In this document: in pieces, positions 6,950 to 63,825 of the stretch
Numbering within the stretch: the first letter of the stretch is position 1
Layout: every line of letters begins with the position of its first letter
Source of the DNA: Streptobacillus notomytis
GTDB lineage: Bacteria; Fusobacteriota; Fusobacteriia; Fusobacteriales; Leptotrichiaceae
Direction of reading: 5' to 3'
Length of the DNA: 64,000 nucleotides
NCBI GenBank assembly: GCA_001612575.1
Contig: LJRV01000308.1
Location: 1 to 64,000, forward strand
Program-made: the position numbers and the translations under genes
Notes under the pieces: generated by a model
What the model saw: the letters and a program-made list of their open reading frames with translations, nothing else
Told to the model about the DNA's origin: nothing
Database searches by the model: none

Positions 6950-9900
6950 TCATCCTCTTAAAATCTCGTCTATCTGCTCCGCTTCGATTTGTTTTTGTAA
7001 ATCATCAATTTTTGTTTCAATATAGTTTTTATGTTTTATCCACTTTAAACCTATAAAATTTGGTAACAATGATTCGAGAAATTCAATCCAAGCTGAATAC
7101 ATAGGTACTGCACTACCTGACCAACTCCAAGAAGTAGGTGTTAATGGTATTTTTTCAAAGTCTTCAAACAACGGATTATTCTCAAGAAATAGCAATATAT
7201 ACTCTTTTTTTCTTTTGATCTCTAATTTTGACACAACTGAAAATAGGCAATACATTTTTGCTTCATCATTGCAGAATTGTTGAATACATTGTCGAATCCA
7301 CATATCTTGTCTTTCTAACAGCTTTTTCTCATTTTGCTTTGGCAATAATAAAGATTCTAAAAAACACGGTACTGACAACCTAGAATATTGACGGTTTCTT
7401 ATCAACTGCTCAAAGATTTTATTATATATTTCTACAAAATCGTCCAAATCAAAAAAGCAACAATGCTTTTCTTGATGGTCGCTAAAGGAGTCACTATTTA
7501 TTAAATAATCTATATACTTGTCCAGTATAGAAGGTCTAACCGAATATATTTCCTTCAAAAATTGTCCGTCATAATCATGATGTTTATCATATGACAACAT
7601 AGCATGGTATATTTCTTCAAGCAATTCTAAATTGCAATTAAATTTTTGAATCACTTCCTTTGGTGTATTATGATGATAATTAAATAACAAGCCAAAATAA
7701 ATATCCACGATAAAAGAGGAATACTCTTTTTTATCCAAAATAATTTTGCAACCTTCTATTAATGCTAATTCATCTATTGCTTTATATTTATCCAGAAAAT
7801 CTACATCACGCATTGATGATGAGGTAATATATCTGTCAGAAGTATCTTTCAAAAAATCATAAAGCCCTTGTAAATGTTTTTCTGTAATTAATCCCTGCGG
7901 TAATTCATGATAATATGCATATGTCCAAGCATTTTTCTGACTATATTCTTCACTAATAATAATTTCATACACTTCTGAATCGGATAATAATGAAAATAAA
8001 TTGTCTACTAGATGGTATGGATGTAAATTGTTTGGTGTATCGTTTTTGATATAATATTTAATTGCATCAACATACCAATCTGCTTTATCGGAAATAGCAT
8101 CAAAGGCAATGCCTAATCCTTCACCAACCTCCCAATATGAATGGTTATCTAGCTCAGAAATACCGTTGCAAACATCAATTAACTTCTTAAATATCTGTAA
8201 ATCACAATTCAAAGTGTAATGATTAATTGATTGCTGCTTTTGTTTTCTATTTTCTTCATAACCAGTTTCTTTATAATCTGGTCCTTTAAGAAGACAATAT
8301 AATTGAAAGCCCTCTCCTTCAAAATATTCAGAAAACAAGGATTCACAAGAATAATTCATTCTGCTAAAAACTTGCACTATTTTGTCTGCTAAAAGGCAAT
8401 TTGCCAATTTATCTGGTGGAAAATTTAACTTCAAAATTAATTCAATATATTTTAAATCAAATTGTAAAACAGGAATGCTTATATCGTCAATAATGCCACC
8501 ATAAGAACTAAGAATTTCCCTAACTTTTTCTCTATACTTTTCAATTTTACTCAAAGAAGTTAACGATTCCCAAATGAACCCACGATATTTTTCAACACCT
8601 TTAGACATAGTTAATGGAATCTGATATATGGTTATTGCATTCTTTCGTCCTTCCTCCGCTGGATAAAATTTTAACTTCAGAAATTCTTCTGCTATCTGCA
8701 AAAAAATTATTACAATAAATTCTTGTTTCCAATCATTTGAATATTCTATTATTTTTTCAAAAAAAATTATTTGAGTATAAAAACTATTACGAAAAGAATC
8801 CCTCTGAATACGAAAATATATATTAACTGCATGGTAAAATTCCATAAATAAATCTGGTCGCTTTAGATAATATTGAAAAAACAAATCACAAGCGGTTGGC
8901 AAATCATTCATATCTGCAAATCCACCAAGAGTTTTAATGATATCATTTTCCACATATTGATAATTTTTTCTTTTTTCAGTATCTATATCAATCCATTCAC
9001 AAATCACTCTTTCTTCAGATTCAATTTCATTTTGCAAAAGCAAAAGTGTTTCCGTAGGATTAATGCGAAAAAAGACTTTTACAAATTCAAAGAAGATTGG
9101 CGATTTTTCTGTTGATAATTCATCCCATAATAACTTTATTTCTTTCTCAGCAAAATTTAAAAGTGCCTTATTTTTAAAAATATTAAGCAACGTATTAACA
9201 GAAGATATAGTTCTCTCTCTGTAACTTAAAAAGCAAGCTTTAATCATTTTCGACAAACTAAGTAATTTTTTGTCAAAGAAAATATATTTTAACAAATAAT
9301 TAGACAAACATTGATCAGAAAAACGAACAGCTTTATCATTACAAATATTGACAATCTCCAGCTCGTGAAGCATATGGATATTTTCAATGAAACTATCTCG
9401 ATTTAACCCTTTTTCCTGTAGAATTGGTAAAAGTGCATCAATATAATCTAAATGAATTGCTTCAAGAAAAGCAATTATACCAGAAGTTATACACAGATTT
9501 TTGTCTGTAAAAAATTGATTATTTTCTAAATTAGAACCATAATAATCTTCATATAATTGTGACACATCGTCAATAGAATCCAAACGATTTGAACTGCATG
9601 CTACTTTCCCAGCAAGTATAGCAATACGGGCGTTCCCTTCTGAAATTCTTATAATTCGTTCTTGATAATCTGAATTCAAAATGCCCAATGAAGTTTCAAG
9701 TAATTCCTTAATCTCATTCTCTGAAAATACATTTACATTCACAATTTCATAAGAAGTGATTGCTTTAACATCGTTTATCACTTTTTGAAGTGCATAATCC
9801 CTTACTGTAATAAGTATTTTTACATTATATCCCTCTGATTTCATACTAACGTATCGAATAATATGCTGCAGTCCTGACAATTGATTGGCATCATCAATAA

Positions 9901-10684
9901 AAAGAAAATAATCTCCTGGTCTATCTAAAAAAAGTTTTAAATCCTCGTATATTGGTAATGCATTACTATGAATACAGTAAGTCTTTTCATTCTTAGCATC
10001 TGCATGATTTTTTACATAATGCAAAGCTAAACGTGTTTTTCCCGTACCTGATGAACCACTAAGTATAACAACATCCACTTTAAGATAAGCATTGATGATA
10101 TCTTGAAATTCTTTTTCTCTGAATAAAAATTTAGTGTCAATTGGAGCAGCCATTCTATTTGCATTGTAACTATTAATAAATTCATCATATGATTGAATTT
10201 GATCTGTACTTATTGATATTCCCAAAAAATCACGTGAAAGATTATGATGGAAAAGATATATATCTTCTGCAAGCTTATCAATTCCAATAATTACAAGCTT
10301 AACTCCAACATCTTCACACAGTTTTTTTACTTCACTATCTTGCAATGGTGTAAAGTTTGATGAAGTATGACAATAAATAATTTCAGAGATTTTGTCATGC
10401 GGAACACCTGTCTTTGCTGTATCAAGACATTTTTCAAGATCATCACTAATTTTTGCAAATAAGTTCGTCCTTTGAGTTGTGTATTCAACAAAAACATACT
10501 TTCCATTTGATGCAATAAAATAAGTATCAGGTGTACCTAAAGTGGTCTTACGTGTACCTGCCTCTCCACCAAGAGATACTATACTCGGATAGCCTGTTTT
10601 ATATAAATAAGAATCACAAAGATTTTGAAATGAACCTGCATCCAGTTGTAGTATTTTTTGTTTAATACTTTCAATATTAGCCAC
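6950..10684 (-). CDS. Avs-like STAND NTPase with PD-(D/E)XK-like N-terminus
   Basis: 1244 residues. Residues about 15-110 resemble an Mrr-type nuclease fold (GTPDTYF with Asp53, then YVFVEYT with Glu67), but the position where the catalytic Lys is expected holds Thr. Residues about 185-480 are a P-loop NTPase: Walker A SGSSGTGKT near 209-217, Walker B FLFIDD near 260-265, then a winged-helix-like stretch. The remaining ~750 residues are helical repeats suited to target sensing. This order (effector, STAND NTPase, long sensor) is that of AVAST/Avs anti-phage proteins, which recognise phage proteins and activate the effector. Start is GTG at 10684 with AGGGGG nine bases upstream, 20 bases after rlmD. 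Base composition is less AT-rich than its neighbours, suggesting transfer. Confidence 0.7.
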   Translation of the reverse strand: MANIESIKQKILQLDAGSFQNLCDSYLYKTGYPSIVSLGGEAGTRKTTLGTPDTYFIASNGKYVFVEYTTQRTNLFAKISDDLEKCLDTAKTGVPHDKISEIIYCHTSSNFTPLQDSEVKKLCEDVGVKLVIIGIDKLAEDIYLFHHNLSRDFLGISISTDQIQSYDEFINSYNANRMAAPIDTKFLFREKEFQDIINAYLKVDVVILSGSSGTGKTRLALHYVKNHADAKNEKTYCIHSNALPIYEDLKLFLDRPGDYFLFIDDANQLSGLQHIIRYVSMKSEGYNVKILITVRDYALQKVINDVKAITSYEIVNVNVFSENEIKELLETSLGILNSDYQERIIRISEGNARIAILAGKVACSSNRLDSIDDVSQLYEDYYGSNLENNQFFTDKNLCITSGIIAFLEAIHLDYIDALLPILQEKGLNRDSFIENIHMLHELEIVNICNDKAVRFSDQCLSNYLLKYIFFDKKLLSLSKMIKACFLSYRERTISSVNTLLNIFKNKALLNFAEKEIKLLWDELSTEKSPIFFEFVKVFFRINPTETLLLLQNEIESEERVICEWIDIDTEKRKNYQYVENDIIKTLGGFADMNDLPTACDLFFQYYLKRPDLFMEFYHAVNIYFRIQRDSFRNSFYTQIIFFEKIIEYSNDWKQEFIVIIFLQIAEEFLKLKFYPAEEGRKNAITIYQIPLTMSKGVEKYRGFIWESLTSLSKIEKYREKVREILSSYGGIIDDISIPVLQFDLKYIELILKLNFPPDKLANCLLADKIVQVFSRMNYSCESLFSEYFEGEGFQLYCLLKGPDYKETGYEENRKQKQQSINHYTLNCDLQIFKKLIDVCNGISELDNHSYWEVGEGLGIAFDAISDKADWYVDAIKYYIKNDTPNNLHPYHLVDNLFSLLSDSEVYEIIISEEYSQKNAWTYAYYHELPQGLITEKHLQGLYDFLKDTSDRYITSSSMRDVDFLDKYKAIDELALIEGCKIILDKKEYSSFIVDIYFGLLFNYHHNTPKEVIQKFNCNLELLEEIYHAMLSYDKHHDYDGQFLKEIYSVRPSILDKYIDYLINSDSFSDHQEKHCCFFDLDDFVEIYNKIFEQLIRNRQYSRLSVPCFLESLLLPKQNEKKLLERQDMWIRQCIQQFCNDEAKMYCLFSVVSKLEIKRKKEYILLFLENNPLFEDFEKIPLTPTSWSWSGSAVPMYSAWIEFLESLLPNFIGLKWIKHKNYIETKIDDLQKQIEAEQIDEILRG

Positions 10685-47661: not shown

Positions 47662-48012
47662 AGTTATTCAGATAAAAATATATTTTTATCTTTAAATCCT
47701 CCTTCTTTATTTTTAAAAATATTATATAAAATAATATTATAGAACATATAATTTCATATAAAGAAACAATAAAAAGACTTTCTTATATATTTAAATTCAT
47801 ATTTATATGTATTTTATCGATATATTTTTTATAATTAAACATTCTATTTGCCCTTTAATTTAAAGATAGAAAGTAATTGTTCTAACTTAACTTATTTTAT
47901 TAATATTTTTCTACATATAAATTCTAACATTTTGAATATTTTTTTTCAATTAACACTAATTTTAAATTAAAAAATAAAAAAGTTCAGATAACTGAACTTT
48001 TATGTCTTAAAT
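47662..48012. other. 350-base intergenic region between amidase and rlpA genes
   Basis: Contains the inverted repeat GATAAAAATA/TATTTTTATC at 47672-47691 just before the amidase start, and the rlpA terminator at 47978-48001. Otherwise plain AT-rich sequence with no gene that I can support. Confidence 0.6.
47978..48001 (-). terminator. Terminator of rlpA
   Basis: AAAAGTTCAG / CTGAACTTTT ten-base stem with a 4-base loop, then TTATTTTTT on the minus strand. Confidence 0.7.
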
Positions 48013-48495
48013 TTATTTTACTATTTCTAGCTTAACTTTAGTAATTCCTTTTTCAAAATTTTCAATTTCTTTGAATGCTGCTTTACTTAAATCAATAACT
48101 CTACCTTTAATATACGGTCCTCTATCATTAATTCTAACTGTTACTGATTTACCGTTACTTATGTTAGTAACTTTTACTTTTGTTCCAAAAGGCAATTTTT
48201 TATGAGCTGCTGATACTTTCCATGTATCAAATATTTCTCCATTAGCAGTTTTTCTTCCATTCCATCTTTCACCATAATATGAAGCAATTCCTGTTTGATA
48301 AATTTCTGTTTCAACCATTTCTCTAATATTTTCTTCTTCTACTGGTTGGCTTTGTTCTTTTAATTCAGATATTAATTCCTTAATATCTTCTCCTTTAACT
48401 TCGACATTTTCAATATGACTACCACTAATATTCTCACTAGCATTAACTAATAATAAGGTTAAAGTCAATAAAAATATCGTTAGTATTTTTTTCAT
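48013..48495 (-). CDS. rlpA: Septal ring lytic transglycosylase RlpA-like protein
   Basis: 160 residues with a signal peptide ([19 protein letters not shown]). The double-psi beta-barrel domain has [30 protein letters not shown] and [22 protein letters not shown], including the Asp and His-type residues of RlpA. RlpA cuts glycan strands lacking stem peptides and lies in or under the outer membrane. There is no C-terminal SPOR domain, so this is the short form. It has its own promoter and terminator. Confidence 0.9.
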
Positions 48496-48553: not shown

Positions 48554-49840
48554 TCAAGGTATATTAATGTCATTAAAAGCACAAAATAATTGATCTTCAA
48601 TACGTTTAACAAAACATAATTTTAGTTTATCTCTACTTTCAAATGATAAAAATATTCTTGTTACATCATTAATAACCTCATCAATTTCAATGTCTTTTAT
48701 TCCCAATTCATCTGTATGTAAAAGTTCATTTTCATCAAGTTCTATATATTCTTGTGGAAAATTAACTATTAATGTAAACTCTTCATTATTTTTATATTGA
48801 TAAATTTTTTCTATAATAATTTCAATAAAAATAGTATTGTTATCTTTATCTATAAAATTAACTATATTTTCATAAAATGATATTATTTTAATTTTTTCAC
48901 TTATATAGTTAATATATGAAATATTTATATCATATTTAAGTTCTATATACTTATACTCTAATATTAAATTTCCTTTATCTCTTTTTCTCTCATAATCATC
49001 AATAATATTAAATATCTCATTTTCATTTACTATATTTTTATATTCCAATATTTTTCCAGGTATAAATTCTTTTAAAACCTCAATAAAATATTTCATGTAT
49101 ACTAATTTACCACTTAATTTAATATCATTAAATTTTTTAAGTATATCTATAATTTTAAAATTTTCAAAAAAATCATAAATAGATTTAAATGAAAGGTAAA
49201 TTATTATATCATCTAAATCTTTTTTATTATTAAAATTTTCATCTTTATAATACATATTCATCAATTCTTTAGCTTCTTCTCTTACATAAATTGAATAATT
49301 ATTAGATAAATTTATTTCAAAATCTCTATTTTCTTTCATAAAATTAAACATATTACCTTCATATTTAAATAATGATTTTCTATCATTTAATATATATTCC
49401 ATTATCATTTTCAAAAACATTATTTCTGTAAGATATGTATTTTCATGTATCACTTGTTCACTCATTTTTAATTTGTATGAAACTTTATTATTCACAACAC
49501 TATGCTTAACGTAAATTATTTTAAAACACTTAATGTCCGATAATATATATGTGTATTCTCTGTCTTTTCCAATAAAATACTTTAAATTATGATAACATTC
49601 AAAACTTAAATTATCATTTAAATCTTCCTCTTCATTTTTCAATATTAGGACATTATTTATTTTAATTTTTATTTTATATTCTATTTTATTGATATAAAAT
49701 TTCATAAATTTTAAAAATAACTCAGAAAAATTTATTATTCGACTATTTAAATTTTCATCTTTTATAATTATAGCATCATTATAATTATAAATTATATCAT
49801 CTATTTGAGTAAAAAAAACTTCTATTTGTCTTATATTCAT
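48554..49840 (-). CDS. Unknown protein, last gene of the contractile-like operon
   Basis: 428 residues, cytoplasmic, no signal or membrane segment. Very rich in Ile, Asn, Lys and Glu. The N-terminal half looks alpha/beta; a segment around 190-280 is helical (KELMNMYYKDENFNNKKDLD). The C-terminal 60 residues are acidic and beta-rich (YIELDENELLHTDELGIKDI). It overlaps the preceding gene by 44 bases, so translation is probably coupled. No family recognised; a baseplate or adaptor role is only a guess from context. Confidence 0.6.
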   Translation of the reverse strand: MNIRQIEVFFTQIDDIIYNYNDAIIIKDENLNSRIINFSELFLKFMKFYINKIEYKIKIKINNVLILKNEEEDLNDNLSFECYHNLKYFIGKDREYTYILSDIKCFKIIYVKHSVVNNKVSYKLKMSEQVIHENTYLTEIMFLKMIMEYILNDRKSLFKYEGNMFNFMKENRDFEINLSNNYSIYVREEAKELMNMYYKDENFNNKKDLDDIIIYLSFKSIYDFFENFKIIDILKKFNDIKLSGKLVYMKYFIEVLKEFIPGKILEYKNIVNENEIFNIIDDYERKRDKGNLILEYKYIELKYDINISYINYISEKIKIISFYENIVNFIDKDNNTIFIEIIIEKIYQYKNNEEFTLIVNFPQEYIELDENELLHTDELGIKDIEIDEVINDVTRIFLSFESRDKLKLCFVKRIEDQLFCAFNDINIP

Positions 49841-50603
49841 TTTCTTTTAAAATATTTTTAGCCTCAGTTCCATAATTTAATGAAATATTATCTTCTAAAT
49901 TTGAAATATCAATACAATAATCTTCTTTTAAATATTTAGACTCAACATTATCTATACCTAATTTAACATAAAGATTTTCTATACTTTCAACTTTTTGTAT
50001 AATATTATATTTAATTATGGGTACTATATATCCATAAATACTATCATTTAATACTTCACTTTTATATTTATTATAATAAATATTATATAGATCTGAACTT
50101 TCTTCAAAAAATGAAAAGAATATCTTTTCATTATTATATTCTGATGTGAATCTATTCAATTCAGGTATTAATGTTAATTCACATTTATAGTAATCATCAT
50201 TTATATCTAAAATTTTTGTACTAAAAATACCATAAATATATCTGTATTCATTAACTAAAAGAACTATATTTAAATCTATATTCTTATTTTTAGTGATACA
50301 TATATTAACTTTAGTAATTATTTCTTTATATATAATTACATCTTCTATAATTATATCAAATTTTTCAAACTCTAAAACTCTTAAGTTTTTTTCAAAAAAA
50401 TCCTGTAATGAATAATAGCCTATTTCAAGATATTCTTCAATTTTTTTATTATATTTATACTCATTATTTTTTAATATATTATTTATTAATTTTTTTCTAT
50501 TTATATCAAAATTATACCTGTCTACGATATTTTCTTTTCTTGCTATCTCATATAGTTCATAATTATTTTTTACTATTAATTCATTTTTATTATAATTCTT
50601 CAA
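49797..50603 (-). CDS. Unknown protein with Rho-N/SAP-like N-terminus
   Basis: 268 residues. Residues about 14-50 (YELYEIARKENIVDRYNFDI then KKLINNIL) follow the helix-extended-helix pattern of Rho N-terminal or SAP-like domains, which usually contact nucleic acid or serve as protein adaptors. The remainder is a beta-rich domain with no recognised motif. It overlaps the kinase gene by 14 bases and the next gene by 44. Function unknown; its place behind the kinase suggests it belongs to the same machine. Confidence 0.55.
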   Translation of the reverse strand: MKNYNKNELIVKNNYELYEIARKENIVDRYNFDINRKKLINNILKNNEYKYNKKIEEYLEIGYYSLQDFFEKNLRVLEFEKFDIIIEDVIIYKEIITKVNICITKNKNIDLNIVLLVNEYRYIYGIFSTKILDINDDYYKCELTLIPELNRFTSEYNNEKIFFSFFEESSDLYNIYYNKYKSEVLNDSIYGYIVPIIKYNIIQKVESIENLYVKLGIDNVESKYLKEDYCIDISNLEDNISLNYGTEAKNILKENEYKTNRSFFYSNR

Positions 50604-51276
50604 TTATATCACTTATCATTTCTTTCATAATAACTGTGCTATTATACCTTTTATATTTTATCAAGGATAAACCTTTTTTTAAAAATCTTTCTAATTTTTT
50701 ATTTGAATGGACAATATTAATATAATTTGAATCACAAATGTTAGGATAAATTTTATTAAAAACTAAATAATAACATATAGATGTTAAAGAATAAGTATCA
50801 TTTTCAATAAAATTTTTTTCGATATTTGAATATTTTTCCAAAGAAGAAAATCCTTTAGTATATGAAAAATATTTTTTATTATATTCACCATTTAAAAATC
50901 TTGATTCAGAAAAATCAATAATATATACATTATTTTCATTAATAATTATATTCCCTAAGTTAATGTCATTGTGTATTAAACCTAAATCATGAATTCTTTT
51001 TATGGCAATAATAATTTTATTAAATATTTCTAGTCTTCCTTTTAATGAATAATTTAATATATTTATTTCATTAAGAGTCTTACCTTTTATTTTTTCATAA
51101 AAAATTTCCCTATTATTTTTTCTTATTTTAACTTTTAATATTCTAGGTATAAATGAAATCTCATTTTTTAATAAGAAAAACATGGTATTTATTTCGTAAT
51201 TAAACATAAAATTATATTCTGGTAAATTAATATTAAATATTTTTTTATAATATTTCATTTCCATAATTCCCACCAT
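50590..51276 (-). CDS. Small Ser/Thr protein kinase
   Basis: 228 residues. Catalytic-loop motif HNDINLGNI (HxD with the metal-binding Asn) and IIDFSES in place of DFG, with an N-lobe lysine candidate in FYEKIKGKTL. The N-lobe is short. The invariant Asp, Asn and second Asp are present, so activity is possible. It lies in an operon with two FHA proteins, which bind phosphothreonine, and a degenerate PP2C-like protein: a phospho-relay as in T6SS regulation by PpkA, PppA and Fha (known for Pseudomonas). Starts at 51264 or 51258 are also possible. Overlaps the upstream gene by 22 bases. Confidence 0.75.
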   Translation of the reverse strand: MVGIMEMKYYKKIFNINLPEYNFMFNYEINTMFFLLKNEISFIPRILKVKIRKNNREIFYEKIKGKTLNEINILNYSLKGRLEIFNKIIIAIKRIHDLGLIHNDINLGNIIINENNVYIIDFSESRFLNGEYNKKYFSYTKGFSSLEKYSNIEKNFIENDTYSLTSICYYLVFNKIYPNICDSNYINIVHSNKKLERFLKKGLSLIKYKRYNSTVIMKEMISDIIEEL

Positions 51277-53021
51277 TTTTTGCCCTTTTTTTTCTTAATA
51301 TATTCTACCTTTTTCTCAATATCTAATTTTATTTTTTTTGAATAATTTACTTTATCCATTAATTCTATAGCCTTTTTATATTCTATAAACGCTTTCTCAT
51401 ACTCATCATTTTTTAATGATTTATCACCTTTTTCTATTGATAATTTAATGGTATATTTCATATCATTTTCTAATTTCAATTTATCTTTTATATCTTCAAC
51501 TTTTTTTATATTTTCCATTTCTATTTTTTTCTTTTGTTTATAAATTAATCTAATTCTACCTTCTAGCTCTTTAATTTTATTGTCATTATGCAACAAATTA
51601 GCATAATAAAGTGATTTTTCAAGAAATGAAATAGATGTAGTGTATTCTTTAATCTCATAGTATTCTTTATGTCTATTATATAATTCATTCATTTTACTTT
51701 CTAAATTTAATATTTTATTTGATATTTCAATTTCTTTTTTACTTAAATATTCAACTTCTTTATTAAATTCCAATTTACTATATTCTTGCTTTAAATAAAT
51801 TATTTCTTTTAAACCTTCTGAAATATTTTGGTCTAATAAATCATCAATTTTAAGATATCTCTTATCCAATTTTATTTTTAAATTATCTAATATTTTAAAA
51901 TTATTATTTTTTCTATCTTCTAAATCATTTATATCTATTTCAAATTTTGATTTTTTATATACCTCTATTAAATTATTTAAAATATCAGTATTTTTAATTA
52001 TGTCCTCTCCAACTAAAAATAATTCATTATTTTGTTCAATTATTAATTTGTCTAACTCAGCTATATCCTTATTAATATCTATTAATAATTTGGGCGAGAT
52101 GTCCTCTATCTTATTTTTTATATTAACATATTCATTTTTGGCTTTTAAAAATTCTCTATTTTTTATCATTTTTTTTGTTATATTTTTAATTTCAAAAATA
52201 TTTTTAAATATATTATTTTTATTCTTCTCTAAGCTTAACTTATTTTTTAACTTTTCTCTTTTTTCTATATTCTTACCTGTATAATAAATGTATTTTTTAT
52301 CTATAAGTATTAACCTATTTTCAATTTCAATTAACTTTTTTTCATTTGATAAATAATCAAAATTATTATTATTCACCTTTGTAAATATGTTTTCAATATG
52401 ATTAAAACTATTATTTAAATAAATGTTTGATAATATAAAATATATAAATACAAAAAATATTAAAAATAATATTGTAAATTTTATAAAAAAGTTATTATTT
52501 GTAAATTTTGATATCTTATTTATTTTAAGTATTTTAAATTCAACAATTTTTTTATTACCTATACGTATTTCTATTAAATCATTTTCAATTAAGGGAAATA
52601 GTTCCGTATATCCAATTATATCTCCTTTTTCAATTATTTGATTTTTAAAAAATATTTCATCATCTCTTATTATATTAAAATAATAATCTTTCATATATAC
52701 ATAAATTACATTGCAATAATCTGTTAATATACACGATAAATATATTTTAGTATTTTCAATATTTTCAACTATTACCCTATCTTCAAATTCAAAAAGTATT
52801 TCTGTAATTAATTTTTTTATATATTTTGAATTAAATACAGTATTTTCTGTAAATCTATAAATTAATTCTTCCATTAAATTATCAAATAATTCTATTTTAC
52901 CTTGACCTTCAATAAAAATAGATACCCCTATTGTAAATTCTTCAGTTTCATAATATACAAAATGGGTATCCTTTTCATTTATACAACAGGGTAAAATATC
53001 TAACTTTTTATTATCCATCAA
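51255..53021 (-). CDS. Membrane protein with degenerate PP2C-like head, coiled coil and TPR-like tail
   Basis: 588 residues. Residues about 1-165 follow the outline of PPM/PP2C phosphatases (strand order and a YLSCILTDYCNVIYVYMKDY core) but lack the metal-binding aspartates, so it is probably catalytically dead. One membrane segment at about 195-217 (FIKFTILFLIFFVFIYFIL) is followed by more than 280 residues of predicted coiled coil and then TPR-like helices ending in a lysine-rich tail (KKKGKKWWELWK). This could span the inner membrane and signal to the machine. It overlaps the FHA gene by four bases and the kinase by 22. Confidence 0.6.
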   Translation of the reverse strand: MMDNKKLDILPCCINEKDTHFVYYETEEFTIGVSIFIEGQGKIELFDNLMEELIYRFTENTVFNSKYIKKLITEILFEFEDRVIVENIENTKIYLSCILTDYCNVIYVYMKDYYFNIIRDDEIFFKNQIIEKGDIIGYTELFPLIENDLIEIRIGNKKIVEFKILKINKISKFTNNNFFIKFTILFLIFFVFIYFILSNIYLNNSFNHIENIFTKVNNNNFDYLSNEKKLIEIENRLILIDKKYIYYTGKNIEKREKLKNKLSLEKNKNNIFKNIFEIKNITKKMIKNREFLKAKNEYVNIKNKIEDISPKLLIDINKDIAELDKLIIEQNNELFLVGEDIIKNTDILNNLIEVYKKSKFEIDINDLEDRKNNNFKILDNLKIKLDKRYLKIDDLLDQNISEGLKEIIYLKQEYSKLEFNKEVEYLSKKEIEISNKILNLESKMNELYNRHKEYYEIKEYTTSISFLEKSLYYANLLHNDNKIKELEGRIRLIYKQKKKIEMENIKKVEDIKDKLKLENDMKYTIKLSIEKGDKSLKNDEYEKAFIEYKKAIELMDKVNYSKKIKLDIEKKVEYIKKKKGKKWWELWK

Positions 53022-53527
53022 TAATTCCAGTCAAAATTCACACCACAAAGTTCTATGAATATGAATTTGTTCTCCCCCATTTCTATGATATCTAAGTTTA
53101 AAATTTGTTTACTTTCATATAAAGCTTTTCCTTGTAAATATACTAATCCACTACTTTCACCTGGAGATATTACAAAAACTCTTTGTTTAGGATTATATGT
53201 TATAGAACAATGATTTTTCCTCGCTATTGTTTGATCATTTTCAATACATACATGCATTTCAGAAGATCGACCTATAAAATTTCTTTCATTTATTAATCTA
53301 TAATCTTTTCCTTTTTCAGATCCAGAAATACATACTAACCATCCTACTACTGGTGAAACATTAGTTTCCTTAATCCAAAAAACTGAGGTTTTAGTATCGC
53401 CTTCTAATATTATTGGCTTTTTTTCTTCTTCTTTTTCAATATTTATTTTATTTCCATCGCAATACGGACAATTTGAATATTTGCTTGTATTATACATATG
53501 TCCATTACTACATTTCAATAATTTCAT
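53018..53527 (-). CDS. Zinc-ribbon FHA-domain protein
   Basis: 169 residues. An N-terminal rubredoxin-like zinc ribbon (CSNGHMYNTSKYSNCPYC) precedes an FHA domain: NFIGRSSEM (Gly-Arg-Ser), the phosphothreonine-contacting HVCIENDQTIARKNHCSI (with Arg, Asn-His) and SSGLVYLQGKALY. FHA domains bind phosphothreonine, so it is a likely target of the operon kinase. It ends with DWNY, overlapping the next gene by four bases. Confidence 0.85.
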   Translation of the reverse strand: MKLLKCSNGHMYNTSKYSNCPYCDGNKINIEKEEEKKPIILEGDTKTSVFWIKETNVSPVVGWLVCISGSEKGKDYRLINERNFIGRSSEMHVCIENDQTIARKNHCSITYNPKQRVFVISPGESSGLVYLQGKALYESKQILNLDIIEMGENKFIFIELCGVNFDWNY

Positions 53528-53538
53528 TAAATCACACC

Positions 53539-54225
53539 TTAATTAACCAATATCTTTATCACACCGACATATATAATATCCCCTACCTCAATTAAATATG
53601 ATTTATTTGGTAATAATTTTTCCTTTATCTTATTTTTTCTTTCTATTCCACTTCCATTTCTAGAATTTAAATCTTCATAATACCATTTTCCATCAACCTT
53701 ATTTAATAATCCATGTATTCTACTTATTAAATGTGAATACTCATGATTAGATAAATCAATATCTATATCATAATTTTTTTCAGATTTTTTACCTATTACT
53801 ATTGAAGCTTTATTTTTAATATCCCAAGAATATATATCATAATCAAAATCATCTTTAAGTGTTAATTTTTTTATGGTATCTATACTTAATTTTATTTTTT
53901 CATCATTTAATTCTTTTATATATTCCTCTTTTTTTTCTTGTAAGATCTTATTAATATATCTAATATTTCTTTTTCTTTCATAAGGATAATAAAAAAGAAA
54001 AAAATACAGTATATAAACATTAAGTAGTGAATAAAAAATAAGTAAACCTTTATATGAGAATCTAATTGATATAAATAATATAAATATTAGTATTAAAATA
54101 ATCAAAAATATCATATATTGTGTGTATGAATTAATTTTTTTAAATTTAACTTTACCATAAATTTTTGAATTTGGCATAATATATTTAAATAACTTCACTT
54201 TAAATATGGTAAACCATTTTCTCAT
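53539..54225 (-). CDS. Membrane-anchored FHA-domain protein
   Basis: 228 residues. Two hydrophobic segments (YMIFLIILILIFILFISI and GLLIFYSLLNVYILYFFLFY, about residues 33-82) anchor it in the inner membrane. A C-terminal FHA domain (about 140-228) has SIVIGKKSEKNYDI, HEYSHLISRIHGL (Ser/Arg-His) and DLNSRNGSGI, the classic Ser-Arg-Asn-Gly FHA pattern. It begins one base after the preceding gene. Two FHA proteins in one operon with a kinase is typical of T6SS/CIS signalling modules. Confidence 0.8.
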   Translation of the reverse strand: MRKWFTIFKVKLFKYIMPNSKIYGKVKFKKINSYTQYMIFLIILILIFILFISIRFSYKGLLIFYSLLNVYILYFFLFYYPYERKRNIRYINKILQEKKEEYIKELNDEKIKLSIDTIKKLTLKDDFDYDIYSWDIKNKASIVIGKKSEKNYDIDIDLSNHEYSHLISRIHGLLNKVDGKWYYEDLNSRNGSGIERKNKIKEKLLPNKSYLIEVGDIIYVGVIKILVN

Positions 54226-54226
54226 A

Positions 54227-54973
54227 TTACTCTACTTCTACTTTTTTATCAAAATCAAATTCTTTGTTAGATTTTGCTAACATATTTAATATTTCATATA
54301 GTTTAATTAATATTTCTGTATTTGTCATTTTTTCTTTATAATATTTAAATTTAGTAAATATATATTTTTTCAATACTTCAATATTAATTGTTTCTATATT
54401 ACATAAAGATGATATCCATAAATCCATACTTTCTTCAAGTTTTAATTCCATCATTTTATTAGACCATATTTTAAGTAATTTGGGATTAATTCCTGTCTTA
54501 GAATATTTAACTTCATTAATGTTTAAAGAATTATATTCTTTTGAGAATTTTTTTAATTCATAATCATAATTTTTTAAAGTTGCACCATTTCTTAAATTAA
54601 ATCTTACAACTTCCATAGAATCAATTTCTTCAATTTTACTTATCTTTAAATATATCTTTTTATTTACAGTATATTCTTTTTCATAATTTTCTGTAACTAT
54701 GTATACTATAAATTCACCTTCATCATCAGGAATGTTAATATAAATTTTTTCATCTAATAATATAACTTCATTGTTAAATTTATATATTCCTTTATCTATA
54801 AATATCTTTTCACCATCAGTTGTAGGATGTAATCCTGAAATTATTCCTTCTTCATAATCAATATATTTTAAAAAGCTAGCACTATCTATATTTTTATTTA
54901 TTGATAATAAATCTACACTTCTTAATACTGTCTTAGTTGAAAACTTAGGTACAATATATTCATTTTCTAACAT
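54227..54973 (-). CDS. Possible baseplate-like protein of the contractile locus
   Basis: 248 residues, no signal. The first ~130 residues are beta-rich, with a pattern reminiscent of phage receptor-binding or TssK shell domains (IIDKGIYKFNNEVILL after GLHPTTDGEKIFI). The C-terminal part is helical (MMELKLEESMDLWISSL, KEKMTNTEILIKLYEIL). The assignment is only a suggestion from domain order and neighbourhood. Gap of eight bases to the upstream tube-like gene and one base to the FHA gene. Confidence 0.45.
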   Translation of the reverse strand: MLENEYIVPKFSTKTVLRSVDLLSINKNIDSASFLKYIDYEEGIISGLHPTTDGEKIFIDKGIYKFNNEVILLDEKIYINIPDDEGEFIVYIVTENYEKEYTVNKKIYLKISKIEEIDSMEVVRFNLRNGATLKNYDYELKKFSKEYNSLNINEVKYSKTGINPKLLKIWSNKMMELKLEESMDLWISSLCNIETINIEVLKKYIFTKFKYYKEKMTNTEILIKLYEILNMLAKSNKEFDFDKKVEVE

Positions 54974-54981
54974 TTAACCCC

Positions 54982-55413
54982 CTATTTTTGATATCCACCT
55001 TCAATTACTATTTCTTTTATTTTTTCCTTTTTTTGCCTAATTTTTAATAAGAAAGTTCCATTACCATTCTTTTCATCAAAATATTCATTATAATCTATTA
55101 GAAATGCATTAGTTAAATTTACTTTTCTAACTACATTTCCAGCTAAAATTATTTCAAGAGTAACATTTTTATATGCTTCTAAGTCTTCTGCACTAACCAA
55201 GGACCAAAGTAATAGTTTTCTTGTCGGATCTTCAACATCATTTTGACCTATACTAGGTATTATCTTACCTTCTATTTCAAGTCCTATACTAAGATCTGTA
55301 GATCTTGCATTAGAGCTATCATTTGTATCTGATAAAAACTTAACACTTACAATATTTTCTTGCTCTACTGTAAATTCTTCGCTACTTCCTTTTAAATTCA
55401 ACTTAAATCCCAT
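54982..55413 (-). CDS. Hcp/tail-tube-like small protein
   Basis: 143 residues, all-beta. The sequence begins MGFKLNLKGSSEEFTVEQEN and includes the Ser-Asn-Ala-Arg-Ser-Thr-Asp-Leu stretch, KLLLWSLVSAEDL, and an acidic FLIDYNEYFDEKNGNGTF near the end. This pattern is shared with small proteins in contractile-type clusters of clostridia, where it was often labelled a membrane-associated protease; I see no protease motif. A beta-barrel tube subunit, analogous to Hcp or phage tail tube, is the most likely role. It follows the sheath-like gene by 14 bases, the usual sheath-tube order. Confidence 0.55.
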   Translation of the reverse strand: MGFKLNLKGSSEEFTVEQENIVSVKFLSDTNDSSNARSTDLSIGLEIEGKIIPSIGQNDVEDPTRKLLLWSLVSAEDLEAYKNVTLEIILAGNVVRKVNLTNAFLIDYNEYFDEKNGNGTFLLKIRQKKEKIKEIVIEGGYQK

Positions 55414-55427
55414 TAATTACCCCACCT

Positions 55428-57566
55428 TTAATTAGTTTTATTTATTTCAATTTTAAGATTTTTAACTTCTCCAAGGAATACTAAATTCAATTGACAAGTA
55501 TTATTTTGTTCATCTATTACATGTGATATATCATCACCCTGTCTTAATATTGCATTTACTGTTGTAGATTCTTTTAACCAAATACTCTTTTGGCTATTTG
55601 GACTATTACTAAAAAAATAATTTAATTTATCTGATTTAAAATCATTACTCATAAATCTTAATAGTCTTTCTATATAGGTCGTTGTTAAAGTTTTATATAT
55701 ACTCTCGTAATTATTATTACTTGTTTTATATAAATTTCTAGCTTTATAAACTGTTATATTCTTTACCTTTTCATTATTTATTTGTGCTTGTTCAGATGCA
55801 AAAATAAATCCATAATTTTTACTATTTATCTCTTCTTTTATTCCAACCGTAAATCCACTAATTTCACGTGCCATTACTGTTCTTACAATTAATGAATTAT
55901 CTTCTGCTTCTATGTTAAATCTAACACCTGGATTATTTGATACATTTTTAAATCTTTCTTTTAAATAAATAGGACATTGATATGCTGCAACTAATCCAGC
56001 AGCTATATATGCAGCATCTATATAAATCCCGTCTAAGAAAAATTCTAAATTATCTCCATCGTTGAAAAATACTCCATCTTCATTTATAATTGCTTTTTTA
56101 TCAATTTTAATTCCAGATTTATCTTTTGGTATTAAAGTTAAATTAGGTAAAACTGGTATAATGTATTCTGAAAATTTACTATTTTCTAATACCTGTGTTT
56201 TTTCAACATACTTATTAATTCCATATATGGCAAGATTTTCAAAAGTATTCTCATTATTTCTTTCAAAACTAATAAAAGTCTGTACTTTATGTTTATAAAG
56301 TATTTCCATTAAATTAGATAAATCCTGTACAGTATTTACATTTTTTGATTTAATATCATTATTACCACTAAATATATTTTTACTACTCTTCTTGAAGTCA
56401 TCTTTTAATGAAATGTTTGGAAAAATAGAAAACCATATTGTATTTTCAAATTCATTTTTATCATTAACAGTTCTTAAATATTTTTCTATTTTTTCTCTGT
56501 TTTTAACTTGAATTAATAATTCATTGTCAACATTAGTAATAAGTAATTTTGGTAGCATTCCTTTAGTATTTACTGAATATTGATCAAAGAATAATTTAAC
56601 CCCCATAACCTTCTCTATTAATTCTTTAGCAATCTTGATAAAATCTTCTTGAGAATTTTTATACAGTTCTAAATATTGATTATAGTTATTTACTTCTTTT
56701 TCAAAATCAATTTTAAGATTATTAGTCGTTATCGGAACATATGTTCTTTTAATTAAATTAGCTACATAATTATTTGGCTTTTCAATACTTTCATAATAAT
56801 CATTTTCAAATATTTCTAATAATTTTTGACTATTATTTGGTAAAAGTTTTACAGTTTCTAATTCCAACTGATCCTCTATAAATTCTATTTCTCCTCCATC
56901 TGAAAATTCTAAATAACCCAGTTTTATTTCCTCAATATTTACATTTTCTTTATTCTCTCCAATTTCAAGTCTAGTTTTTATATCTTCTATAGCTAATGGT
57001 AACATCGCTAAAATATTATTGTAATTTTTTGATGCTTCTTGAAATTTATAATTTAATAAATCTCCAACATCAAGTTTTTTAGGACTTTTATCGCTTAAAG
57101 CTTCATATTTTGCAAATAGATAATTGATTTCTTTTCTTTGTTGTTTTATATTTTCTATTATTTTTCTCGGTGATATTAACTCTAAAATATCCTCAAATTT
57201 AAAATCTACATTTTTCTGATCTAAATTTTTTCTATTTTCAATCAATGTTGATAACATTCTTATAAAAGTATTTTCATTATTAATATATATTGTTGTATAC
57301 ATAGAATCTGGAATATTTTCATTTTTTGTAAGTGTATATCCAATTCTTTTATTTTCAACATCCATATATGAATAAATTTTTGGTTCAAATTTTTCTAAAA
57401 ATTCATTAAAATCCGATACTAATAAATGCTTATTTATTTCTTGAATTTTTTCATCATCTAAACTACTAATATTTTCAACATCACCTATTAAAGTTAATAT
57501 ATCATAAACCTCTTCATTAAATTTTTCGAACAGTAATGTACGATTTGTTTGTTTTATAACCTCCAA
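55428..57566 (-). CDS. Probable contractile sheath (TssC-like) protein
   Basis: 712 residues, first gene of the operon. Start is TTG at 57566, with GGGGGAG nearby and no in-frame ATG close. N-terminal ~200 residues are helical. The C-terminal half has IWFSIFPNISL, YIIPVLPNLTLIPKDKSG, GIYIDAAYIAAGLVAAYQCP, and a final block (LTTTYIERLLRFMSNDF, then STTVNAILRQG and QLNLVFLGEVKNLKIEI) laid out like the TssC C-terminus: conserved helix, then linking beta-strands. The length fits a fused TssB-TssC. Confidence moderate: I recognise architecture, not exact family. Promoter at 57640-57668. Confidence 0.5.
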   Translation of the reverse strand: MEVIKQTNRTLLFEKFNEEVYDILTLIGDVENISSLDDEKIQEINKHLLVSDFNEFLEKFEPKIYSYMDVENKRIGYTLTKNENIPDSMYTTIYINNENTFIRMLSTLIENRKNLDQKNVDFKFEDILELISPRKIIENIKQQRKEINYLFAKYEALSDKSPKKLDVGDLLNYKFQEASKNYNNILAMLPLAIEDIKTRLEIGENKENVNIEEIKLGYLEFSDGGEIEFIEDQLELETVKLLPNNSQKLLEIFENDYYESIEKPNNYVANLIKRTYVPITTNNLKIDFEKEVNNYNQYLELYKNSQEDFIKIAKELIEKVMGVKLFFDQYSVNTKGMLPKLLITNVDNELLIQVKNREKIEKYLRTVNDKNEFENTIWFSIFPNISLKDDFKKSSKNIFSGNNDIKSKNVNTVQDLSNLMEILYKHKVQTFISFERNNENTFENLAIYGINKYVEKTQVLENSKFSEYIIPVLPNLTLIPKDKSGIKIDKKAIINEDGVFFNDGDNLEFFLDGIYIDAAYIAAGLVAAYQCPIYLKERFKNVSNNPGVRFNIEAEDNSLIVRTVMAREISGFTVGIKEEINSKNYGFIFASEQAQINNEKVKNITVYKARNLYKTSNNNYESIYKTLTTTYIERLLRFMSNDFKSDKLNYFFSNSPNSQKSIWLKESTTVNAILRQGDDISHVIDEQNNTCQLNLVFLGEVKNLKIEINKTN

Positions 57567-57639: not shown

Positions 57640-57668
57640 ATTATATTATTTTTTAATTTTAATGTCAA
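57640..57668 (-). promoter_or_regulatory. Consensus sigma70 promoter of the contractile-like operon
   Basis: On the minus strand TTGACA (57663-57668), exactly 17 bases, TATAAT (57640-57645): perfect matches at both boxes, implying strong constitutive transcription unless blocked. Confidence 0.8.
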
Positions 57669-57712: not shown

Positions 57713-57736
57713 AAATGTACCATCTTAGGTACATTT
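57713..57736 (-). terminator. Terminator of trmB
   Basis: AAATGTACC / GGTACATTT nine-base stem with a 6-base loop, then TTTATTTC on the minus strand. Confidence 0.7.
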
Positions 57737-59404: not shown

Positions 59405-61231
59405 TTATCTTAATGCAATCTCTACTCTTCTATTTAAATATCTTCCTGTTGAATTCTTATTTGTTTCCACAATATTACTATATCCTGATGAACTTACCTT
59501 TCTTATAGATATACTTCCATCTAATCCTAATTCTCTTAATTTTTCAGCAACTTTATTTGCTCTCCTTAACCCCAATTCAAGATTGAAATTTTCATTTGAT
59601 ACATTATCTGTATACCCTGTTATATATATTTTTCTGTTCTTAAAATTAATGTTTAATTCTTTCACAATATTCCTAAGTATATCTATTTGTGAACTTGTTA
59701 ATTCTGATGCTCCCATCTTATATCCATTTAATGTATATAGATCATCTTCATTTACTTTAATGCTTTCATAATTTTTTAATTTTTCTCTAAATCTTTCAAG
59801 CTCTTGACATATGTTGCCATTTTGTTTATCTAATTTATCATTTAAAGCATTCAATCTTTCTAAATAAATATTAATAGTTGTATCTTTTTCTTTTGAATCA
59901 TTATCATAACCTCCAAATTGATAACTTATTCCTGCTCCTAATGCTAAATATCCTTTTGTATTAAGTGATCCACTTGCTCTATACACTATATTATCATTTG
60001 TTCCAGAAAATCCTAAAGCAAAAGCATTCTCTCCATTATAGTAAGCATATGATCCTGAAAGATTATGTCCTTTATTATTTACTTGTAATAAATTTGCCAT
60101 TGCTATTGCATTTGCTATTCCACTATTTGCTGCAACTCCTTTTTCTATATCTTTTTTAATTTTATCTGATAAATCTACATTAACTTCATTTCCATTTGCT
60201 TTTGTTATAATATGATCAGAACCCTTAATTTTAAAATTCAGTCCACTATTTTTATTTAACATTTGTTTTTCTGTAGTTCCACTATCTCCATCAAATGATA
60301 AGGTATTTGTAGATAATTTCTCTAATTTTTCACTCGTTTCTTTATTTTTATCAAAATTCTCTTTTATTGAATCATGTATAGTATTCTTACTAGTTCCACC
60401 AATATTTGACATAGTTATTTTACCATTTATATCCAAATTTGCATTAGAACCAAAAATATCTTTAACTGAACTTGCAAAATATCCAAAAATCTTATTTGTT
60501 GAATAAAGTTGTGAACCATTTATTGCATCAGTAGATGTGCTACTTATTTGTCCTGCTGCAACATTCTGTAGTTGTCTTTCCTTATCTTTATCTCCTATAG
60601 ATACTACTGAAACAGGATTATTTCCTGCAAATCCATTATATTTTATATTTTCTATTGTAACTTCATTTGTTTTTACTGCATTTGTTGTCTTACTATTAGA
60701 TCCTATAGCTACTGATTTTTCTGAATTGGCCTCTGCTTGATCACCTATTGCTATTGAATATTCTCCTTTAGTTTTAGCTTCATTTCCTAGTACTATTGAA
60801 AAGGCTTTTCCAGCTTTTGAATTACTTCCTATTGATATTGAAGTCCCTCCTTCAGCTTGTGCTTTATATCCTTGTGCTATTGCATAATTTGCTCCAGATT
60901 TTGCTCCATATCCATGTGATATTGAAGCGTATCCATCAGCTTGCGCTTCATACCCTTGTGTTACTGCAGCATATCCTTCACTTGAACTTTTATTTCCAAT
61001 TGCTATTGAGTATTCTCCACCATGTTCTGTTTTAGAACCCACACTAATACTATTTTTATTTTGATCTCCTATTCCATAATATATTGGTTTTATTTCATAA
61101 TTCATACCATTTCGTTTTTTTAATCCTTCTGGCATTAAATCTGTAGTTTGTCTATTTGCAAAAATATTTTCTATTGTCAAAAATGTAATAAATAATAATA
61201 GTATGTTAAATAATGATTTATTTTTTTTCAT
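59405..61231 (-). CDS. Trimeric autotransporter-type adhesin with C-terminal OmpA domain
   Basis: 608 residues. Signal peptide (KSLFNILLLFITFLTIENIFA). Residues about 55-185 are repeating YadA-head motifs (AIGNKSSSEGYA, AISHGYGAKSG-like, SIAIGDQAEANSE). The neck motif is STSTDAINGSQLYSTN. Residues about 365-440 look like the four-strand YadA anchor (GIANAIAMANLLQV, then NGENAFALGFSG, GYLALGAGISYQFGG). Unusually, a coiled coil (IYLERLNALNDKLDKQNG) and an OmpA-type peptidoglycan-binding domain (ITGYTDNVSNENFNLELGLR, RYLNRRVEI) follow, with the Asp and Arg used to bind diaminopimelate. The trimer would display heads outside and hold peptidoglycan inside. Terminator follows. Confidence 0.85.
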   Translation of the reverse strand: MKKNKSLFNILLLFITFLTIENIFANRQTTDLMPEGLKKRNGMNYEIKPIYYGIGDQNKNSISVGSKTEHGGEYSIAIGNKSSSEGYAAVTQGYEAQADGYASISHGYGAKSGANYAIAQGYKAQAEGGTSISIGSNSKAGKAFSIVLGNEAKTKGEYSIAIGDQAEANSEKSVAIGSNSKTTNAVKTNEVTIENIKYNGFAGNNPVSVVSIGDKDKERQLQNVAAGQISSTSTDAINGSQLYSTNKIFGYFASSVKDIFGSNANLDINGKITMSNIGGTSKNTIHDSIKENFDKNKETSEKLEKLSTNTLSFDGDSGTTEKQMLNKNSGLNFKIKGSDHIITKANGNEVNVDLSDKIKKDIEKGVAANSGIANAIAMANLLQVNNKGHNLSGSYAYYNGENAFALGFSGTNDNIVYRASGSLNTKGYLALGAGISYQFGGYDNDSKEKDTTINIYLERLNALNDKLDKQNGNICQELERFREKLKNYESIKVNEDDLYTLNGYKMGASELTSSQIDILRNIVKELNINFKNRKIYITGYTDNVSNENFNLELGLRRANKVAEKLRELGLDGSISIRKVSSSGYSNIVETNKNSTGRYLNRRVEIALR

Positions 61232-63622: not shown

Positions 63623-63646
63623 AAGTATAAAAAAATAACTATACTT

Positions 63647-63816
63647 AACCAATAGCTCAACATTATATTTTATAATGACAGTATTATAAATGTTATTTAT
63701 AATCCCACCTATGTAGTTGTCAAATACATAAGTTCGGCAATTTCCCCTTTCAAATTTAATCATCACATTGACTAGTTCATAAATTTTACTGTTGAATTTT
63801 GCACCTCTATCTCGTT
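63647..63816 (-). ncRNA. Lysine riboswitch (L box)
   Basis: On the minus strand the core elements of the L box occur in order: GATAGAGGTGC (63801-63811), AGTAA (63786-63790), AAAGGGGAAATTGCCGAA around 63733-63750, AGGTGGGAT near 63703-63711, CTGTCA (63676-63681), then GAGCTATTGGTT closing P1 with AACGAGATAG (63807-63816). Spacing matches the Bacillus lysC L box. Lysine binding would stabilise P1, take CTATTGGTT away from the antiterminator, and let the terminator at 63603-63622 form. So uptake is shut when lysine is plentiful. Confidence 0.9.
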
Positions 63817-63825
63817 ATTTGGTAT

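What the first reader, a model, noticed from the sequence alone, without database searches (positions are those of the whole stretch)
48554..57566. Compact contractile-like operon with its own phospho-relay
Nine overlapping genes under a perfect promoter: sheath-like, tube-like, possible baseplate, membrane FHA, zinc-ribbon FHA, pseudo-PP2C with TM and coiled coil, Ser/Thr kinase, and two unknowns. T6SS control by kinase, phosphatase and FHA is known in Pseudomonas; similar sheath/tube sets occur in clostridia. What is odd is that ClpV, TssM/J/L, VgrG/PAAR and a clear effector are missing from the operon, which is flanked by terminators.
Basis: partly seen in the sequence, partly recalled or inferred. 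Interest (0 to 1): 0.8.

Follow-up and report, generated by a model that had tools for sequence, protein, structure and literature searches.

The report
T6SS-like injection machine, two loci
This operon encodes the spring and inner tube of a spear-like protein-injection machine that is shared by fusobacteria and many Gram-positive bacteria, lacks several standard parts of the known type VI secretion system, and keeps its baseplate and toxin-carrying tip at a second place in the genome.

Summary
The operon is real and its core reading holds. Eight genes, not nine: the two 'unknowns' are one gene split by a one-base frameshift, intact in three congeners (75,76). The genome is a Streptobacillus; its relative G001 has the S. 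moniliformis chromosome length (106). The 143-aa protein is a tube: 33 of 40 homologues hit Pfam TssD (49). The 712-aa protein models poorly, but its fold matches are mainly T6SS, phage and CIS sheaths (64,71). The 'missing' parts are at a second locus, contig C347: a homologue of a family that models as a TssF/gp6-like wedge (82,88), c8, a second tube-like gene, a split VgrG-like hub, and a DUF4280 (PAAR-like) tip with CHAP (51,99). DUF4280 tracks the sheath in 37 of 40 genomes (78). Bacillota carry both halves in one cluster, with Hsp70-like, J-domain, vWA and PP2C genes (22,24,31,45). Recognisable ClpV, TssK, TssM and gp25 were not found (54,55,111,112). The 'phospho-relay' is not supported here: truncated kinase, degenerate phosphatase, no PP2C_2 match (100,101). 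Genes are under purifying selection (109). Best reading: a divergent, envelope-anchored, T6SS-like contractile injection system, probably the 'unknown phage-like translocation system' postulated in PMC8651086.

The parts
55428..57566 (-). Sheath protein (712 aa), TssC/VipB-like fold in residues ~340-700
   Evidence: Top Foldseek PDB match VipA/VipB 5myu; VIA matches to many T6SS, phage and CIS sheaths (64,71); model confidence is low (56); dN/dS 0.065 (109); 47-57% identical in Bacillota and Fusobacteriota (22,41)
54982..55413 (-). Inner tube protein (143 aa), Hcp/TssD-like
   Evidence: PF17642 TssD in 33 of 40 homologues, best 6.6e-5; gp19 in 3 (49); PDB profile best hit Hcp1 6bdc E=0.026 (58)
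54227..54973 (-). X248: conserved protein of unknown fold, possible baseplate or adaptor component
   Evidence: Conserved in both phyla (80); non-significant profile hit to cyanobacterial CIS protein All3314, E=0.82 (86)
53539..54225 (-). Membrane FHA protein (hydrophobic stretch 30-80, FHA 143-221)
   Evidence: PF00498 E=1.4e-7 (4); hydropathy (110)
53018..53527 (-). Zinc-ribbon FHA protein, among the most conserved genes of the set
   Evidence: PF00498 E=9.6e-6 (4); dN/dS 0.038 (109)
51255..53021 (-). Degenerate PP2C-like domain, one TM (~175-204), coiled-coil part, C-terminal WWxxWK tail
   Evidence: Homologous position to PP2C-TM-TPR proteins of relatives (24,45,101); tail conserved in Leptotrichiaceae (110)
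50590..51276 (-). Kinase-like protein without N-lobe (HND and DFS present, beta-3 Lys absent)
   Evidence: PF00069 E=2.1e-11, profile 57-223 only (4); alignment (101)
48554..50603 (-). Degenerate Hsp70/actin-like protein, one gene with a one-base frameshift near 49818
   Evidence: Single ORF in three congeners (75,76); orthologues in Fusobacterium and Bacillota carry IDFG(T/S)xNT and DCGGGTTDL motifs (15,25); weak HSP70 Pfam hit in Paenibacillus (45)
48013..48495 (-). RlpA-like lytic transglycosylase, conserved neighbour in several Leptotrichiaceae, probably accessory
   Evidence: PF03330 E=2.2e-26 (4); adjacent in L009, L013, L020 (12)
57640..57668 (-). Consensus sigma-70-type promoter (12/12, 17-bp spacer)
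   Evidence: consensus match only
47978..48001 (-). Terminator-like stem after RlpA
57713..57736 (.). Bidirectional terminator-like stem upstream of the promoter

Best explanation
The operon encodes the contractile body and control/anchoring proteins of a T6SS-like contractile injection system. The 712-aa protein forms the sheath and the 143-aa protein the inner tube. At a second locus (G000:C347 ~26.7-33.4 kb) lie a TssF/gp6-like baseplate wedge candidate (383 aa), its partner c8 (221 aa), a second tube-like protein, a gpD/base-V hub split in two genes (188+280 aa) and a 1034-aa DUF4280 PAAR-like tip protein with a C-terminal CHAP domain. Proposed working: the baseplate with hub and tip docks on membrane-anchored FHA and pseudo-PP2C proteins at the cytoplasmic membrane; tube and sheath polymerise behind it; contraction drives tube, hub and the DUF4280-CHAP effector out of the cell into a neighbour, where CHAP would cut peptidoglycan. 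In Bacillota a kinase, PP2C and FHA module would gate assembly, and an Hsp70-like/J-domain pair could replace ClpV in building or recycling the sheath; in Streptobacillus these enzymatic parts have degenerated to likely scaffolds. Shown by computation: gene content, conservation, co-occurrence, tube family, domain calls. Inferred from structure models: sheath and wedge identity. Inferred only: anchoring, firing, export of the effector, target cell, role of Hsp70.
For: Tube: TssD profile hits in 33/40 homologues, Hcp1. Sheath: first Foldseek PDB hit of 350,542 chains is the T6SS sheath; VIA rows over 340-700 are dominated by sheaths of T6SS, phages, pyocin and CIS (71). Wedge: Bacillota c7 model (pLDDT 84; 82) best VIA match is chain I of TssK-TssF-TssG 6n38, Z 7.9 over 323 residues, with T4 and Streptomyces CIS baseplate chains also over full length; the own-genome homologue hits the c7 profile. 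Hub and tip: PF05954, PF04717 and PF14107 with CHAP (51,102). DUF4280 and sheath agree in 37/40 genomes, p=5.8e-8, and at genus level p=1.6e-4; c7 follows the same pattern. Syntenic single clusters in Bacillota join both halves (24,31,108). Membrane proteins but no phage or plasmid homologue of the sheath (65,66,110). Purifying selection in all parts.
Against: Sheath model has mean pLDDT 46 and no sequence profile hit to known sheaths (56,57,20). The wedge match is Z 7.9, at the level where chance matches occur, with rmsd 6.5, and Foldseek itself gave no significant match (87,107). The wedge model is of the Bacillota family, not of the window genome's own protein. c8 and X248 remain unidentified. 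No gp25 initiator, ClpV, TssK or TssM detected (54,55,111,112). Envelope anchoring and function are not demonstrated. One gene in this assembly is frameshifted.
Confidence: 0.78

Rival explanations
1. A released particle (tailocin or eCIS) derived from a phage tail: built in the cytoplasm, freed by lysis, and binding target cells by fibres.
For: Sheath, tube, wedge, gpD hub and PAAR-like tip are shared with eCIS and tailocins; VIA matches include Streptomyces CIS and pyocin R2 sheaths (71).
Against: No tape-measure, fibre, lysis or AAA+ (Afp15-like) gene was recognised in the clusters read (31,102; searches limited); several conserved proteins are membrane-anchored (110); no phage or plasmid homologue of the sheath (65,66); the best sheath and wedge matches are T6SS proteins (64,71,88).
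Confidence: 0.15
2. A relic: the system no longer works in Streptobacillus, with pseudo-kinase, pseudo-phosphatase, degenerate Hsp70 and a frameshift.
For: Frameshift near 49818 (75); kinase without N-lobe, degenerate PP2C, no PP2C_2 hit in the genome (100,101).
Against: Sheath, tube and ZnFHA are as constrained as neighbouring housekeeping genes; both halves of the split gene have dN/dS ~0.16; three congeners have it intact (76,109). The frameshift may be an assembly error or phase variation (draft of 823 contigs).
Confidence: 0.12
3. A contractile device used inside the cell or for self-directed functions (e.g. stress-triggered cell death, as proposed for some Streptomyces CIS), not for attack.
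For: Coupling to kinase/PP2C/FHA/Hsp70 modules in Bacillota (24,45); monoderm carriers.
Against: DUF4280 proteins carry variable extensions, CHAP and other domains, and an Imm11 immunity-type gene sits beside the tip gene in Tepidibacter (51,102), a signature of antagonism.
Confidence: 0.15
4. Not a contractile system: the 712-aa protein is a different scaffold and the tube hit is spurious.
For: Low-confidence sheath model; sub-threshold Pfam scores per protein (4,56).
Against: Independent identification of tube, hub, tip and wedge families in linked, co-occurring genes (49,51,78,88).
Confidence: 0.05

Closest known systems
Type VI secretion system (T6SS i-iii)
   Same: Sheath and tube folds, TssF-like wedge candidate, VgrG-like gpD/base-V hub, PAAR-like tip, FHA/kinase/PP2C control set as in Pseudomonas H1-T6SS; tube closest to Bacteroidetes-type TssD (PF17642)
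   Different: Single large sheath gene (no separate TssB seen); no ClpV above cut-off, TssK, TssM or gp25/TssE found (54,55,111,112); Hsp70-like and J-domain genes in the cluster; present in monoderm Bacillota
Unknown phage-like translocation system postulated for Firmicutes from GPD next to PAAR_H2/DUF4280 genes (PMC8651086)
   Same: Same GPD-DUF4280 gene pairs in Bacillota
   Different: That paper reports no conserved T6SS or eCIS genes nearby; here a sheath, tube, wedge candidate and control module are linked to them, and the system extends to Fusobacteriota
Extracellular and membrane-anchored contractile injection systems (Afp, PVC, Streptomyces CIS, Anabaena tCIS)
   Same: Sheath, tube, hub, PAAR-like tip, gp6-like wedge
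   Different: No recognised tape measure, fibre, gp25 or Afp15-like ATPase; membrane FHA and pseudo-PP2C proteins
Francisella T6SS-ii IglG / DUF4280 PAAR-like protein (PMC5014421)
   Same: DUF4280 tip domain
   Different: Rest of the Francisella cluster not recognised here

Membership tests
Contractile injection machines (general) | Contractile sheath protein | tested here: met
   Fold matches dominated by sheaths (64,71), with the caveat of pLDDT 46 (56)
Contractile injection machines (general) | Inner tube protein | tested here: met
   TssD in 33/40, gp19 in 3/40 (49); Hcp1 E=0.026 (58)
Contractile injection machines (general) | Baseplate wedge | tested here: inconclusive
   c7 model: TssF-complex chain Z 7.9 over 323 residues plus T4 and CIS baseplate chains (88); no significant Foldseek match (87)
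Contractile injection machines (general) | Hub/spike and tip (VgrG-like, PAAR-like) | tested here: met
   PF05954, PF04717, PF14107 (27,28,51,102)
Type VI secretion system | ClpV (TssH) recycling ATPase | tested here: not met
   TIGR03345: 0 of 24 relatives over cut-off; only ClpB-type hits (55)
Type VI secretion system | TssK | tested here: not met
   PF05936: 0 of 40 (111); a divergent TssK analogue (X248?) is not excluded
Type VI secretion system | TssJLM membrane complex | tested here: not met
   PF06744 (TssM): 0 of 40 (112); TssJ and TssL not searched
Type VI secretion system | gp25/TssE initiator | tested here: not met
   PF04965: none over cut-off in 24 relatives; 1 of 7 Bacillota carriers, remote from the cluster (54,73)
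Type VI secretion system | Separate TssB and TssC sheath subunits | tested here: inconclusive
   One 712-aa sheath gene; N-terminal 340 residues unresolved (56)
Type VI secretion system | Contact-dependent injection | not testable with these tools
   Needs microscopy and competition assays
eCIS / tailocin | Tape measure, fibre, lysis genes, Afp15-type ATPase | tested here: inconclusive
   None recognised in the proteins scanned (31,45,51,102), but not every ORF was scanned
T6SS-type threonine phosphorylation control (PpkA-PppA-Fha) | Active kinase and PP2C phosphatase | tested here: not met
   In this genome: kinase lacks N-lobe, PP2C degenerate, no PP2C_2 match (100,101); intact-looking in Bacillota (45,101)

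The most novel reading that the evidence does not exclude
A distinct, ancient lineage of membrane-anchored contractile injection systems spans monoderm Bacillota and diderm Fusobacteriota, with a single large sheath protein, no ClpV/TssK/TssM/gp25, and an Hsp70-like/J-domain chaperone pair plus kinase-phosphatase-FHA module replacing the known assembly, recycling and control parts; it would be a contact-dependent injection system of Gram-positive bacteria.
Probability: 0.5. Interest if true: 0.9.

Novelty: new variant of a known kind. Interest (0 to 1): 0.78.

Why it matters
Contractile injection by a T6SS-type machine is regarded as a trait of Gram-negative bacteria. A 2021 survey (PMC8651086) found GPD and DUF4280 genes in Firmicutes without any contractile body nearby and postulated an unknown translocation system. 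Here the sheath, tube, wedge candidate and control module are found next to those genes in Bacillota and, as two loci, in fusobacteria such as Streptobacillus. If it works as proposed, it explains how many DUF4280 and Rhs-type effectors leave Gram-positive cells, and it raises the question of how such a machine is recycled without ClpV and anchored without the TssJLM complex.

Tried and rejected
Sequence profile of the sheath against PDB and Pfam: nothing (20,57). PHROGs and PADLOC: nothing useful (10,11). Sheath in 72,556 plasmids and 50,697 phages by tblastn: no match (65,66). c7 and c8 profiles against PDB sequences, and c8 and X248 members against Pfam: no consistent family (62,63,81,85). 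BFVD fold search of c7: uninformative (107). An attempt to gather Gammaproteobacterial TssB/C/F/G for profile-profile comparison failed because no genome handle could be used (68,72,73). The window's other gene run at 4.7-24 kb was checked as a possible second half and is ordinary (UvrA, MreB, CysS, transporters; 14). Considered and rejected: the two 'unknown' ORFs as separate effectors (one frameshifted gene, 75,76). 'Phospho-relay' is a misnomer, as no His-Asp relay is involved. The literature search covers only open-licence PMC papers, no preprints, so an existing description could have been missed.
Full report
OBSERVATION. The nine ORFs are present on the minus strand from 57566 to 48554. 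Two of them, 268 and 428 aa, are halves of one gene: in three congeneric genomes a single frame of 681-684 aa spans both, and the window differs by one base in a T run near 49818 (75, 76). So the operon has eight genes. A consensus promoter (12/12) lies at 57668-57640 and terminator-like stems at 57713-57736 and 47978-48001; the latter lies after an RlpA gene that has its own promoter-like site (77). The window lies in G000:C308; the complete relative G001 has a chromosome of 1,662,578 bp (29, 30), the length published for S. moniliformis 9901T (106), so the window is from Streptobacillus (inference).

SHEATH AND TUBE. The 143-aa protein scores below Pfam's cut-off for TssD alone, but 33 of 40 homologues match TssD (best 6.6e-5) and three match phage tube gp19; the profile's best PDB sequence is Hcp1, E=0.026. 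The 712-aa protein has no sequence relative of known function. Its AlphaFold model is poor (pLDDT 46; 56), yet the first of 350,542 PDB chains is the VipA/VipB sheath (E 0.014; 64), and VIA-align places sheaths of Azotobacter, Vibrio, Francisella, Pseudomonas and Myxococcus T6SS, of phages phiKZ, T4, phi812 and P1, of pyocin R2 and of Streptomyces CIS over residues ~340-700. I take the sheath identity as likely, not proven.

DISTRIBUTION. The sheath is found in 19 of 40 related fusobacterial genomes, plus a 34-residue relic in G005 (6); in 233 stretches of the genome collection, with Paenibacillus, Brevibacillus, Aneurinibacillus, Clostridium, Tepidibacter, Halanaerobacter and others at 46-55% identity; and in 13 of 398 sampled genomes of the phylum of Tepidibacter. 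It has no homologue in the phage or plasmid collections. In 73 informative loci of the genome collection the usual order is sheath, tube, J-domain protein, membrane FHA, zinc-ribbon FHA, PP2C, PP2C-TM-TPR, c7, c8, Hsp70-like (22 loci exactly so; 108), preceded by a kinase and, in many, a vWA-TM protein.

SECOND LOCUS. In Bacillota the cluster continues with X248, a GPD/base-V (VgrG-like) gene, DUF4280 genes and other large proteins. Searching the own genome for DUF4280 gave one gene on contig C347. There, c7 (383 aa), c8 (221 aa), a second tube-like gene (profile E 1.8e-6 in G001), gpD (188 aa), a 280-aa base-V-type protein (by homology to the C-terminal part of VgrG-like relatives) and a 1034-aa DUF4280-CHAP protein lie in a row. 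In G001 the two loci are ~105 kb apart. Across 40 genomes DUF4280 and sheath agree in 37 (Fisher p 5.8e-8; by genus p 1.6e-4; 78), and c7 shows the same pattern.

BASEPLATE. The Bacillota c7 family models well (pLDDT 84; 82). Foldseek finds nothing significant (87), but among its 1000 best chains VIA-align ranks first chain I of the TssK-TssF-TssG complex 6n38 (Z 7.9, 323 residues aligned, 52-426), with a Streptomyces CIS baseplate chain (Z 5.4) and a T4 baseplate chain (Z 5.0) also over the full length; other rows cover only one small domain (88). Chain I is taken as TssF from its length (my knowledge). Z below 8 can be chance, so this is suggestive. c8 and X248 remain unidentified; X248 has a non-significant hit to the cyanobacterial CIS protein All3314 (86).

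CONTROL MODULE. Bacillota members have an intact-looking kinase, a PP2C (PF13672 3.8e-16), FHA proteins, a J-domain protein (7e-27) and an Hsp70-like protein. In the window the kinase has lost the N-lobe with the beta-3 lysine, the PP2C domain is degenerate, and no PP2C_2 match exists in the genome; the Hsp70-like protein has lost its ATPase motifs. These proteins may act as scaffolds here. All genes are under purifying selection between G000 and G001, with sheath, tube and ZnFHA as constrained as housekeeping neighbours and the DUF4280-CHAP protein among the fastest.

WHAT IS ABSENT. No TssK (0/40; 111), TssM (0/40; 112), gp25 over cut-off in the fusobacteria (54; one unlinked hit in seven Bacillota carriers, 73) or ClpV over cut-off (55). 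Hence it fails defining parts of the canonical T6SS, though it probably works like one.

KNOWN OR NEW. [quoted passage not shown] I found no paper describing the sheath, tube and control cluster, within an open-licence library without preprints. I therefore call it a new variant of a known kind.

LIMITS. No experiment; structure models only for two proteins, one poor; function, anchoring and targets are inferred.

Noticed in passing
L147:6190-6650 (own contig C347) and L137:10740-11170: The second tube-like gene seems to start at a non-ATG/GTG/TTG codon (ATT after a GGAGGGG-type site) in both Streptobacillus genomes; standard ORF calling truncates it to 73 aa in the own genome (105).
   Followed up: partly
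window 59405-61231: 608-aa protein with YadA-like head repeats and membrane anchor followed by a coiled coil and an OmpA-like domain, an unusual order for a trimeric autotransporter.
   Followed up: no
window 51255-51300, C-terminus of the PP2C-like protein: C-terminal KKWWxxWK tail conserved in most Leptotrichiaceae homologues (NWIPF in Fusobacterium), not seen in Bacillota (110).
   Followed up: partly
G005 (Leptotrichiaceae, single-contig genome), C1:1178659-1178760: A 34-residue sheath remnant with a stop codon: the system seems to have been lost there (6).
   Followed up: no
window 6950-10684: 1244-aa protein with a STAND-type NTPase domain near an AAA-HTH protein (5454-6506); possible defence genes.
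   Followed up: no
G427:C1:778809-780971 and G295:C1:159973-162072: Full-length but only 29% identical sheath relatives in Bacillota: a divergent subfamily (90).
   Followed up: no
window 63645-63817: Lysine riboswitch (RF00168).
   Followed up: no
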